From Solirubrobacteraceae bacterium (GTDB lineage: Bacteria > Actinomycetota > Thermoleophilia > Solirubrobacterales > Solirubrobacteraceae): DNA of 64,000 bases. A program made the position numbers and the translations under genes. Location: the NCBI GenBank assembly GCA_029263125.1, contig JAJCYD010000008.1:1-64000 (forward strand), in the 5' to 3' direction. The number at the start of each line of letters is the position of its first letter. The first letter of the stretch is position 1. Under the pieces are notes generated by a model. The model searched no databases. It was not told the DNA's origin and was given only the letters and a program-made list of their open reading frames with translations. Below are positions 208 through 54,933 of this stretch, one piece after another.

Positions 208-253
208 GCATTGTGGTGCTGTTCTGTAACGCCCACTCGGCGACGATCGAGGG

Positions 254-1186
254 GTGTGCCGTTCTGAGACACCCAGGCGTTCACAGGACAGCACACCCCC
301 CGATGTCAGGGTCGCCCGGCGCGCGGTCGAACAGCACGGCGTGGTGTCCACGCGCCAACTGCGCGACTACGGGCTCAACGGCACGGCCGTCACGCGACGC
401 GTCAAGAAGGGGCGCCTGCACCCGCTGCATCGCGGCGTCTACGCGGTCGGCCATCCCGCCGTGACGCGCGAAGGCCGCTTCATGGCGGCGGTGCTGGCCT
501 GCGGAGCCCGAGCGTGCCTCAGCCACTTCGCGGCGGCCGTCTTGTGGGGCTTCATGCGCTGGGAGGATCGACTTCCGGACGTGACCGTCGTCGGTTGTGA
601 GCGCCATGTCGAGGGATTGCGAGTGCATCGCTCGCGCGCTCTGCTGCCGCCCGACGTCCTGCGACACAAGGCGATACGCGTCACCTCGCCCGCGAGAACC
701 CTGCTGGATCTCGCGGCCGTGCTGCCCGAACGGACGCTGCGCCGCGCGGTCAGGCAGGCGCAGGTCGATCGACGGGTGTCCGTACGCCAGATCCTCGAAC
801 TGGTGAGCCGCTCCAACGGCCACCGCGGCGCGGCGAAGCTGCTGGCCGTGGTCGCCGACGGACCGACGCCGACGCGCAGCGACCTGGAGGACATCATGCT
901 CGACCTCTTCGACGGCGCCGGCATGCAGCGCCCCGAGATCAACGTTGGTCTGCGCCTCGACGGGCGCACCATCATCCCGGACTTCCTCTGGCGCGACCGG
1001 CGCCTGGCGATCGAGGCAGACGGCGCCATCTGGCATGACCACAAGCTCACGCGCGAGAACGATGCCGACAAGCAGGCGATACTCGAGGCGCACGGCTACC
1101 GCGTGGTGCGCGTCGCCTATCAGCAGGCCGTCACACGACCAGGCCAGACCCTCGCGCGCATCCGAGCGGCGCTCGGCGAGCGCTAA
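254..1186 (+). CDS. AbiEi-type winged-helix plus DUF559 nuclease-like fusion
   Basis: 310 residues from a GTG start with GAGG just upstream. Residues about 20-75 resemble the winged-helix domain of AbiEi antitoxins (RQLRDYGLNGTAV, then GRLHPLHRGVYAVG). The C-terminal third (about 225-305) matches the DUF559 / very-short-patch-repair-like PD-(D/E)xK fold: PDFLW, then IEADG, a WHDH stretch and an EAHGYRVVRV ending. This architecture is common and often lone in actinobacteria; its function is not established. No AbiEii-type nucleotidyltransferase toxin lies beside it, so it is not a normal type IV toxin-antitoxin pair. Nuclease activity is an inference from the fold. It converges on the dehydratase gene downstream and overlaps its 3' end by four bases. 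Confidence 0.75.
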   Translation: MCRSETPRRSQDSTPPDVRVARRAVEQHGVVSTRQLRDYGLNGTAVTRRVKKGRLHPLHRGVYAVGHPAVTREGRFMAAVLACGARACLSHFAAAVLWGFMRWEDRLPDVTVVGCERHVEGLRVHRSRALLPPDVLRHKAIRVTSPARTLLDLAAVLPERTLRRAVRQAQVDRRVSVRQILELVSRSNGHRGAAKLLAVVADGPTPTRSDLEDIMLDLFDGAGMQRPEINVGLRLDGRTIIPDFLWRDRRLAIEADGAIWHDHKLTRENDADKQAILEAHGYRVVRVAYQQAVTRPGQTLARIRAALGER

Positions 1187-52154: not shown

Positions 52155-52538
52155 GTGGATGCCGTGCTCGTCAATGCGCCCTTCCGTCTGCCGCCCGAGC
52201 CGATCGAGGCCGACCTACTGGCCAAGTACTTCCGCGTACTTGGCGATCGCACTCGGCTGCGGGCACTGGAACTCGTCGCTGAGGGCGAGCGCTCCGTCGG
52301 CGAGCTCGTCGCGCTGCTTGACGAGCCACAGACCAAGGTCTCCAACCACCTCGCGTGCCTGCGCTGGTGCGGGTTCGTGACGACGCGACGCGAGCATCGC
52401 ACGATCCACTACCGCCTCGCCGACGATCGCGTGACCAGGATGATCGAGCTCGCCCGCGCGCTGCTGCGCGACAACGACGAGCACGTCGCGGCCTGCCGAC
52501 ACGTCGACACAGCTCCTGATCTGCGGACGATCGCATGA
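52155..52538 (+). CDS. ArsR/SmtB-family metal-responsive repressor (CmtR-like)
   Basis: 127 residues. Winged helix with RVLGDRTRLRALELVAEGE and the recognition helix QTKVSNHLACLRWCG. The Cys pair in LACLRWCGF plus a C-terminal Cys (VAACRHVD) matches the arrangement of the Cd/Pb-binding thiolates of mycobacterial CmtR. Metal binding would release it from the palindrome upstream. Its ATGA stop overlap couples it to a small thiol protein. Confidence 0.85.
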   Translation: MDAVLVNAPFRLPPEPIEADLLAKYFRVLGDRTRLRALELVAEGERSVGELVALLDEPQTKVSNHLACLRWCGFVTTRREHRTIHYRLADDRVTRMIELARALLRDNDEHVAACRHVDTAPDLRTIA

Positions 52539-52843
52539 CCATCGAGCTGCTGTACTTCGACGGCTGCCCCAACCACGACGCGGTCGTGGCGCGCCTGCGC
52601 GAGCTGCTCACCCAGGCCGGCATCGACGTGACGATCGCCATGCACCGCGTGGAGACCGTCGAGGACGCGGAGCGCGAGCGCTTCCTCGGCTCACCGACGA
52701 TCCGCGTCGGCGGACACGACGTCGAGCCCGGGGCCGAGAGCCGCGATGACTACGGCATGAAATGCCGCCTCTACGCCACCGACGAGGGGCTGCGCGGCAC
52801 CCCGCCCGACGCCTGGATCCTCGGCGCGTTGACCGGCTCGTGA
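52535..52843 (+). CDS. Small thioredoxin-like / alkylmercury-lyase-like protein
   Basis: 102 residues. YFDGCPNHDAVVARLREL at the start and FLGSPTIRVGGHDV in the middle are typical of small thioredoxin-fold proteins often labelled alkylmercury lyase; a second Cys sits in YGMKCRLY. Genuine MerB is about twice as long with a different Cys set, so organomercury cleavage is unlikely. A metal or thiol handling role with the ArsR-type sensor fits. Confidence 0.72.
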   Translation: MTIELLYFDGCPNHDAVVARLRELLTQAGIDVTIAMHRVETVEDAERERFLGSPTIRVGGHDVEPGAESRDDYGMKCRLYATDEGLRGTPPDAWILGALTGS

Positions 52844-53222: not shown

Positions 53223-53520
53223 GGGTCGTTTCGATCCATGACGTCCGCGGGCCGGGGCAGCTGCGTCGTGGTCGAGCCGCCGGCGCTGAGCGACGACGCG
53301 GCGTCCGAGCGGCTCGATCACGCATGGATCCCGTCGCGCCCCGGGCCAGTCAGGAAGTCGCAAGGTCGGTCTGCGCCTGCATCCTGGCGCCATGACCACG
53401 CTAGGCCCGTTGGCCGCGAGGAGCTTGCTCTCACTCCCGGCCCAGCGGCTGGGCGGGTTCGGCATGACAGACGTGCAGAAGGCGCCCAACCCGCTGATCA
53501 CAGGCGACCGCGATCGCCAC

Positions 53521-53664: not shown

Positions 53665-53781
53665 CCGTGCATAACTGACGTCTCGACGCCGCTTCATTCT
53701 CGATTCGGCAGTTGTGCATCACATGGATGTACAACTGCCGGATCCGGCGCCGGCACCGGCCGAGGCGTCAGTTGTGCACGG
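53665..53781. repeat. 117-nt nested palindrome
   Basis: Two inverted repeats share one centre (53723). Inner arms 53702-53720 and 53726-53744 pair over 19 bp, 17 by Watson-Crick and two by G-T, with the loop ACATG. Outer arms 53665-53687 and 53759-53781 pair over 23 bp with three changes. All four arms carry the core CAGTTGTGCA or a close variant. It would form a long hairpin in RNA or a cruciform in DNA; it is not near a stop codon. Confidence 0.8.
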
Positions 53782-54003: not shown

Positions 54004-54933
54004 GTGTCCGGCGACCCGGCAATCGAGATCGACGGGCTGCGCAAGTCCTATGGGGCCTTCGAGGCCGTGCGGGGTCTGTCGCTGATCGTCGAGCGCGGCG
54101 AGATCTTCGCGTTCCTCGGCCCCAACGGCGCCGGCAAGACGACGACCGTCGAGATCCTCGAGGGGTTTCGCAAGCGCGACGGCGGCGACGTGCGCGTGCT
54201 CGGCGTCGATCCCGAGCACGGTGGTCGCGCGTGGCGGGGGCGCATCGGCATCGTCCTGCAGGAGGGTCGGGCGCAGTCCGAGCTGACGGTGCGCGAGACG
54301 CTGACCCTGTGGGCCGCCTACTACCCGAAGCCGCGCCCGATCGCCGAGACGATCGTGCTGGCGGGCCTGGAGGAGAAGGCCGAGGACCGTGTCGGGCGGC
54401 TGTCGGGCGGCCAGCGGAGACGCCTGGACGTCGGCCTTGCGCTCGTCGGCGACCCCGACCTCGTCTTCCTTGACGAGCCGACGACCGGCTTCGATCCGGT
54501 CGCCCGCCGCGCGGCGTGGAAGGTCATCGCCGGCCTGCGTGATCTCGGCAAGACCGTCTTCCTGACGACGCACTATCTCGACGAGGCGCAGGAGCTCGCC
54601 GACCGCGTGGCGATCATCCGCGCCGGCTGCATCGTCGTCGAGGGGGCGCCCGACGCGCTGACCGCCGGCAGCCCGGACACGGAGATCCTGTTCGTCGCCC
54701 CGCCCGGCGTCGGCCTCGACGAGCTCCCCGTCCCCGAGATCCCACAGATCGTCGATGGGCGAGCGCGACTGCAGACCGGAACGCCGACCAGCACTCTGGC
54801 GACGCTGTGCGGCTGGGCCGCCGAGCGCGGGATCGAGCTCGAGCGCCTTGAGGTCCGCCGCCCGTCGCTCGAGGACGTCTATCTCGAGCTCGTCGACGGC
54901 GACGAGCCGGCCGCCACGGAAGCCGCGTCGTGA
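54004..54933 (+). CDS. ABC transporter ATPase (drug-exporter, CcmA/DrrA type)
   Basis: 309 residues. Walker A GPNGAGKTT, signature LSGGQRRRLDVG, Walker B LVFLDEPTTGFDP, H-loop TTHYLDEA, and a C-terminal regulatory extension of about 90 residues ending RRPSLEDVYLEL, typical of DrrA-like ATPases. It powers the permease encoded next. GTG 54004 lies eight bases after TAGGCT. Confidence 0.93.
   Translation: MSGDPAIEIDGLRKSYGAFEAVRGLSLIVERGEIFAFLGPNGAGKTTTVEILEGFRKRDGGDVRVLGVDPEHGGRAWRGRIGIVLQEGRAQSELTVRETLTLWAAYYPKPRPIAETIVLAGLEEKAEDRVGRLSGGQRRRLDVGLALVGDPDLVFLDEPTTGFDPVARRAAWKVIAGLRDLGKTVFLTTHYLDEAQELADRVAIIRAGCIVVEGAPDALTAGSPDTEILFVAPPGVGLDELPVPEIPQIVDGRARLQTGTPTSTLATLCGWAAERGIELERLEVRRPSLEDVYLELVDGDEPAATEAAS

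What the first reader, a model, noticed from the sequence alone, without database searches (positions are those of the whole stretch)
53665..53781. 117-nt concentric double palindrome built from four CAGTTGTGCA-like cores
Inner 19-bp and outer 23-bp inverted repeats have the same centre (53723). Most mismatches are G-T compatible, as if RNA pairing were conserved. The same core occurs four times in alternating orientation. It stands in a 1.16-kb gene-less scar, not after a gene, so it is not a terminator. It may be a REP/MITE-like mobile unit, an IS200/IS605-type end, a structured small RNA, or a multi-site operator.
Basis: seen in the sequence. Interest (0 to 1): 0.68.

Follow-up and report, generated by a model that had tools for sequence, protein, structure and literature searches.

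The report
Scattered copies of an antitoxin-nuclease operator
The double palindrome is one of about 22 scattered copies of a 117-letter, four-site DNA switch whose parent copy sits at the start of a gene for an antitoxin-like protein fused to a homing-type DNA cutter, and other bacterial genera carry the same layout with different letters, which points to an undescribed type of spreading repeat.

Summary
53665-53781 is a 117-nt element with four half-sites of about 23 nt in alternating orientation, centred at 53723. The own genome (3.75 Mb Thermoleophilia MAG) holds 21 full copies, 20 of them exactly 117 nt, plus one split by an IS256-type insertion. Four other species of the genus carry diverged copies of the same length. 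In all five genomes with the element, one copy overlaps the start of an orthologous AbiEi-like/DUF559 gene. The two genus members without elements lack that ortholog. Homologous genes in other genera have the same 60-bp-period operator with other cores. A model built only from two such foreign operators found about 30 and 12 scattered 117-nt copies in those two genomes. Predicted structure: a complete AbiEi antitoxin fold fused to a homing-endonuclease (I-Bth0305I/VSR) domain. The layout matches the four-repeat operator of the M. tuberculosis antitoxin Rv2827c. Arms do not covary, so these are protein sites on duplex DNA, not a structured RNA. No REP transposase exists in seven genus genomes. 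Best reading: dispersed copies of the operator of an AbiEi-nuclease fusion. Binding is inferred by analogy. That the nuclease spreads the copies is a hypothesis.

The parts
53665..53781 (+). 117-nt four-site element (one of 21 full copies in the genome); 4 x 23-nt half-sites + 11 + 3 + 11 nt
53665..53687 (+). half-site 1 (core TGCATAACTG at 53668-53677)
53699..53721 (-). half-site 2 (core CAGTTGTGCA at 53709-53718)
53725..53747 (+). half-site 3 (core TGTACAACTG at 53728-53737)
53759..53781 (-). half-site 4 (core CAGTTGTGCA at 53769-53778); in the gene-linked copies a terminal half-site overlaps the GTG/ATG start codon
52844..54003 (.). gene-poor interval that holds the element; flanked by ORF 52535-52843 and ABC-transporter ORF 54004-54933
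53446..53512 (+). inverted pair of a second, different dispersed repeat family (CTGGGCGGGTTCGGCATG...GTGCAGAAGGCGCCCAAC); a neighbour, not part of the element
230..1186 (+). a DUF559 paralog in the window (stop-to-stop frame) without this element next to it; not the parent gene, which lies outside the window at about G000:C43:4296-5215 (-)

Best explanation
The element is a dispersed copy of the operator of a resident gene that encodes an AbiEi-antitoxin-like DNA-binding protein fused to a VSR/I-Bth0305I-type nuclease domain. Shown here: many copies per genome; constant 117-nt, four-half-site design; one copy at the start of the orthologous gene in all five genus genomes that have the element; the same design with other cores at homologous genes in other genera, with matching scattered copies there. 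Inferred: the winged-helix part binds each 23-bp half-site on duplex DNA, four per element, and represses its own promoter, as Rv2827c does on its four-repeat operator; the scattered copies are extra binding sites for the same protein. Hypothesis only: the nuclease domain drives the spread of the sites by cutting and copying repair (homing-like), so that sites and protein specificity change together in each lineage.
For: Copies: 21 full + 1 split. Site columns 87% identical against 60% for spacers. Gene-linked copy in G000, G001, G002, G003 and G006; G004 and G005 have neither elements nor the ortholog (best hits only paralog-level). Chance of a random copy within about 150 bp of that gene start in all five is about 1e-17 by a simple estimate. 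Other genera: best four-site arrangement upstream has period 60-61 in 26 of 80 loci vs 4 of 80 control stretches, and <=10 mismatches in 13 vs 0. Independent prediction met: model R3 from two foreign gene-linked elements finds 30 places in G153 and 12 in G136; 19 of 20 G153 copies read are 117 nt. Protein: AbiEi_4 + DUF559; AlphaFold model (pLDDT 88) matches AbiEi 6y8q (Z 8.6, 176 residues), Rv2827c 1zel (Z 6.7) and homing endonuclease I-Bth0305I 3r3p (Z 13.0). Precedent: the rv2827c promoter has four 23-bp repeats with 13-4-13 gaps, all bound (PMC7319586). Gain of a site: hypF locus, 24-35 bp in G001/G002/G004 vs about 243 bp with the element in the own genome.
Against: No binding, cleavage or expression data. 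Only one clear empty site, and the extra segment there is about 200 bp, more than the element, with no target duplication. The parent gene appears frameshifted or stopped in G000, G003 and G001 (MAG errors cannot be excluded), so the protein may be dead in this genome. 21 of the 26 genomes searched in genus g35 gave no R3 match, and many DUF559 homologs show no clear four-site array. DUF559 genes are multi-copy, so which paralog serves which copies is inferred from adjacency. Most genomes are draft MAGs. Residues 60-190 of the model give only moderate fold scores.
Confidence: 0.68

Rival explanations
1. REP/BIME-type palindromes moved by a RAYT (Y1 tyrosine transposase).
For: Dispersed intergenic palindromes in paired, alternating orientation, with one gene linked to a copy, as in REP-RAYT systems.
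Against: No Y1_Tnp (PF01797) match in any of seven genus genomes, while the same search rang in E. coli and other controls. The unit is a fixed 117-nt four-site array, not 20-40-nt REPs. The linked gene is AbiEi-DUF559.
Confidence: 0.03
2. A true regulon: scattered copies are functional operators through which the AbiEi-like protein regulates about 20 host genes.
For: Well-kept half-sites and spacing in copies that differ elsewhere. Element at the PspA-associated gene in three species.
Against: Neighbours are mixed housekeeping genes. In the own genome 8 copies lie between convergent genes and 2 between divergent ones (counted). Copies differ between species and at least one looks newly gained. 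Among the copies read, a start codon inside the element was seen only at the parent gene.
Confidence: 0.17
3. A non-autonomous transposon (MITE) of a DDE transposase that happens to carry the operator.
For: Terminal inverted repeats, uniform length, dispersed, lineage-specific copies.
Against: No target duplication seen around copies or at the empty site. The ends are half-sites of the operator itself. The parent copy sits at the same ortholog's start in five genomes.
Confidence: 0.07
4. A structured non-coding RNA or attenuator.
For: Very stable predicted fold.
Against: No meaningful covariation above shuffles. More than half of the copies break pairs at some tolerated positions. No Rfam match. 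The core changes on all four sites alike between species.
Confidence: 0.03
5. Chromosome-organising or titration sites bound by the protein, kept by selection, not selfish.
For: Fixed architecture and conserved sites; copies in many intergenic positions.
Against: Copy number varies from about 3 to 22 between species of one genus, and two genus members have none.
Confidence: 0.08

Closest known systems
Operator of the M. tuberculosis AbiEi-family antitoxin Rv2827c (PMC7319586)
   Same: Four 23-bp inverted repeats in two pairs, from -1 to about -131 of the start codon; gaps 13-4-13 bp there, 11-3-11 here; regulator with an AbiEi fold.
   Different: Single operator of a toxin-antitoxin operon; no scattered copy family described in the passages read; no nuclease domain mentioned for Rv2827c; no AbiEii-type gene was evident next to the parent gene here.
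AbiE type IV toxin-antitoxin (AbiEi, S. agalactiae, PDB 6y8q)
   Same: N-terminal winged helix plus C-terminal antitoxin-like domain recovered in the model (Z 8.6); inverted-repeat operator.
   Different: Fused here to a VSR-like nuclease; four sites, not two; apparently solitary gene.
EDxHD/VSR-type homing endonuclease I-Bth0305I (PDB 3r3p)
   Same: Nuclease domain fold (Z 13.0, 96 residues).
   Different: That enzyme is a mobile-intron protein; here the domain is fused to an AbiEi antitoxin and linked to dispersed non-coding sites. No cleavage shown.
REP/REPIN-RAYT systems
   Same: One gene per genome linked to many short dispersed palindromic copies; lineage-specific sequence.
   Different: No Y1 transposase; element is a four-site operator that overlaps the gene's start codon.

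Membership tests
AbiEi-family autoregulatory operator (Rv2827c type) | Four ~23-bp inverted repeats in two pairs immediately upstream of an AbiEi-fold gene | tested here: met
   Parent copies in five genomes; gene has AbiEi_4 and an AbiEi-like fold; comparison figures from PMC7319586
AbiEi-family autoregulatory operator (Rv2827c type) | The protein binds the repeats and represses its promoter | not testable with these tools
   Needs gel shift and reporter assays
AbiE type IV toxin-antitoxin system | AbiEi next to an AbiEii (DUF1814) toxin gene | tested here: inconclusive
   Neighbours of the parent gene are dehydratase-like, MobA-like and aspartate-semialdehyde-dehydrogenase-like ORFs, read by eye; no domain search for AbiEii was run
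REP/BIME with RAYT | Y1 tyrosine transposase (PF01797) in the genome, flanked by the palindromes | tested here: not met
   0 of 7 genus genomes; controls positive
IS200/IS605 ends | TnpA (Y1) and subterminal hairpins | tested here: not met
   No Y1_Tnp
MITE | Target-site duplication | tested here: inconclusive
   None seen by eye in flanks of 21 copies or at the one empty site, whose borders do not align exactly
MITE | Terminal inverted repeats and uniform length | tested here: met
   20 of 21 copies 117 nt, one 118
Structured RNA | Covarying base pairs | tested here: not met
   84.4% paired vs 83.2% shuffled; 77.2% vs 78.9%
Homing endonuclease-driven element | VSR/EDxHD nuclease fold in the linked protein | tested here: met
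   3r3p Z 13.0, 1cw0 (VSR) Z 10.4; D226, E237, D239, H244 invariant in 10 homologs
Homing endonuclease-driven element | Cleavage of unoccupied target and copying into it | not testable with these tools
   No assay; a single gained site is compatible but not proof

The most novel reading that the evidence does not exclude
A new class of spreading repeat: the operator of an antitoxin-like regulator has become a mobile unit because the regulator carries a homing-type nuclease. The protein both represses itself through the four-site array and copies that array to new places, so array and DNA specificity diversify together in each lineage, with decay of the gene after spread.
Probability: 0.33. Interest if true: 0.9.

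Novelty: new variant of a known kind. Interest (0 to 1): 0.74.

Why it matters
DUF559/AbiEi_4 genes are abundant in this order of bacteria (147 of 232 genomes searched had a match at 1e-25 or better) and Pfam still lists DUF559 as of unknown function. This gives such genes a DNA target that can be read from sequence, one per gene, with a fixed layout: a ready test of what they bind and whether they cut. If the nuclease does spread the sites, this would be a gene-plus-repeat partnership parallel to REP-RAYT but built from an antitoxin and a homing enzyme. It also supplies natural sets of protein-site pairs with different specificities.

Tried and rejected
One search (alignment A1) held rows I had typed by hand; it was discarded, and everything was redone from locus references (A2). 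A degenerate-pattern search found nothing; the profile search replaced it. A Rfam scan gave only a tRNA. RAYT/IS200 was rejected. RNA structure was rejected. A coding role for the element was considered because the parent copy is in an open frame continuous with the gene in four genomes; variable positions of the half-sites do not fall on third codon positions of the gene frame, and many dispersed copies carry TGA where a coding frame would need to stay open, so this was dropped. 'Lost in the others' for the hypF site cannot be excluded, but three species would have to lose it. The window's own locus gave no alignable empty site: its ABC ortholog in G002 lacks an element, but the intergenic DNA does not align. 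Literature searches found no description of scattered AbiEi-type operators or of DUF559-linked repeats; the library holds open-licence papers only, so earlier description elsewhere is possible.

Full report
Observation. The palindrome is as described: inner and outer inverted repeats share the centre 53723, and four cores alternate in orientation. It is well beyond chance (fold z = -9.8).

Copies in the own genome. BLAST with the 117 nt found about 15 places. A profile from 21 copies (alignment A2; model R1) gave 21 full copies and two halves. The copies from BLAST and exact-core searches trained the profile, so their scores are not independent; the hits in other genomes are. Twenty are 117 nt and one 118 nt. 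The two halves (C2 and C23) are the two sides of an IS256-type insertion into a 22nd copy: one half ends, and the other begins, with GTTGTGCA, an 8-bp duplication (the IS family name rests on the look of the ORF and was not searched). All full copies lie between genes as called by a simple codon-usage caller, apart from a 14-nt overlap with one weak ORF. Conservation is confined to the four sites: mean column identity 87% against 60% in spacers. The half-site consensus from 84 half-sites is RTGCAnAAsTGmCGnnTCG.

Duplex sites, not RNA. If the arms were kept by base pairing, changes on one side would be matched on the other. They are not: pairing between outer and between inner arms is 84.4% against 83.2% after shuffling, and the alternative hairpins pair less than shuffles, 77.2% against 78.9%. 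Each half-site keeps the same letters and tolerates changes at the same positions independently, which is what a DNA-binding protein would impose.

The genus. Of the seven genomes of the genus, five have the element: about 22 copies in the own genome, 9 in G002, 4 in G003, 5 in G006 and 3 in G001. The four relatives were not used for R1. The length stays close to 117 nt, but the core differs by species: GTGCACAACTGCCGG in G002/G003, GTGAAGGAGCGACGG in G006, TGCAGTGACGACGG at the gene-linked copy in G001. Copies resemble others of the same genome more than those of other genomes (own 0.71 within, 0.52-0.57 between), except that G002 and G003 copies are about as close to each other (0.60) as within G002 (0.58).

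The parent gene. In all five genomes one copy overlaps the start of an orthologous gene: G000 C43, G001 C11, G002 C112, G003 C499, G006 C37. The terminal half-site contains the likely GTG or ATG start codon. G004 and G005, without elements, have only distant paralogs. The product has AbiEi_4 at the N-terminus and DUF559 at the C-terminus (in the G006 protein AbiEi_4 is just under Pfam's cut-off). The AlphaFold model of the intact G002 protein (pLDDT 88.4) matches the whole AbiEi antitoxin (6y8q, Z 8.6 over 176 residues, model 2-192), Rv2827c (1zel, Z 6.7) and, for residues 191-295, the catalytic domain of homing endonuclease I-Bth0305I (3r3p, Z 13.0) and VSR (1cw0, Z 10.4). Sequence profiles also find 3hrl and 3r3p. 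In G000, G003 and G001 the frame of the parent gene is interrupted; draft-assembly error is possible.

Other genera. Homologs of the gene in other genera were scanned for four half-sites in alternating orientation just upstream, with the repeat period left free between 45 and 75. In 80 named loci (most of them Solirubrobacterales MAGs; Patulibacter medicamentivorans among them) the best arrangement had period 60 or 61 in 26 cases, against 4 in control stretches inside the genes, and 13 had ten or fewer mismatches against none. Cores differ from gene to gene: GTGCATGACGCGTC, AACGCACCACTCG, GGGAAAGTGAC, CCGTGGTTCCTTT. Some of the 80 are genus members or come from the same genome, so the count is not of independent events.

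A prediction and its outcome. If the scattered family is copied from the parent operator, then the genomes of L144 (G153) and L152 (G136) should hold scattered copies of their own, different operator. A model of those two sequences alone found 30 places in G153, 12 in G136, and further sets in G132, G138 and G139, at or near full length. Of 20 G153 copies read, 19 are exactly 117 nt, and the closest is very similar to the parent. In G139 the gene-linked array and the scattered copies also look alike, including the linker (by eye). Twenty-one other genomes of that genus gave no match.

Movement. At the hypF locus, G001, G002 and G004 have 24-35 bp between two genes that in the own genome are about 243 bp apart with the element in the middle. 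This is a gain in the own lineage or, less simply, loss in three. The extra DNA exceeds the element by about 60 bp on the left and about 45 bp on the right. No target duplication was seen there or around other copies. In G002 two element types lie side by side twice.

Comparison with what is known. The rv2827c promoter of M. tuberculosis has four 23-bp inverted repeats with gaps of 13, 4 and 13 bp within -1 to -131 of the start codon, and its AbiEi-family product binds all four (PMC7319586). Here 4 x 23 + 11 + 3 + 11 = 117. The parent copies therefore fit a known kind of operator. What I did not find described is the scattering of such operators, their link to an AbiEi-nuclease fusion, and the lineage-by-lineage change of core with constant layout. 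The gene-plus-repeat arrangement works like REP-RAYT, but it is not a member: no Y1 transposase is present.

Verdict. Shown: a dispersed repeat family that is copied from, or kept alike with, the operator region of a specific gene family, with constant architecture across genera. Inferred from precedent: binding and self-repression. Open: whether the nuclease spreads the sites, and whether the scattered sites do anything for the host.

Noticed in passing
window 53446-53512; G000 C5:17086-17251, C24:121367-122127, C10:76867-77042, C35:13796-13960, C7:93028-93192 and others: A second dispersed family of inverted sites (core GCATGnnAAnCGCCCAgC), usually as tandem pairs about 90 bp apart, that lies beside the 117-nt element in the window, at C5:17 kb and at C23. 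Its parent gene is unknown.
   Followed up: partly
G000 C2:1-212 and C23:1-1525 (L059, L109): An IS256-type element inserted in the centre of a 22nd copy, with 8-bp duplication GTTGTGCA; the assembly breaks there.
   Followed up: partly
half-sites of all own-genome copies (A2): Tolerated positions recur every third base (TGCAnAAsTGmCGn), an unusual pattern for a binding site; unexplained.
   Followed up: no
L158 (G139:C38), upstream of a DUF559 gene: Near-exact tandem 60-bp units, at least two and a half, which suggests growth of the array by unit duplication.
   Followed up: no
L091:4953-5184 and L093:5041-5303 (G002): Two element types with different cores directly side by side (gaps 0 and 29 nt) in one intergenic region.
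   Followed up: no
L056, L090, L096: Element next to a PspA-associated gene in three species; either an old shared site or a preferred landing place.
   Followed up: partly
L259 upstream of a DUF559 gene: Strong four-site array (3 mismatches over three comparisons) but with period 70 and core CCGTGGTTCCTTT.
   Followed up: no
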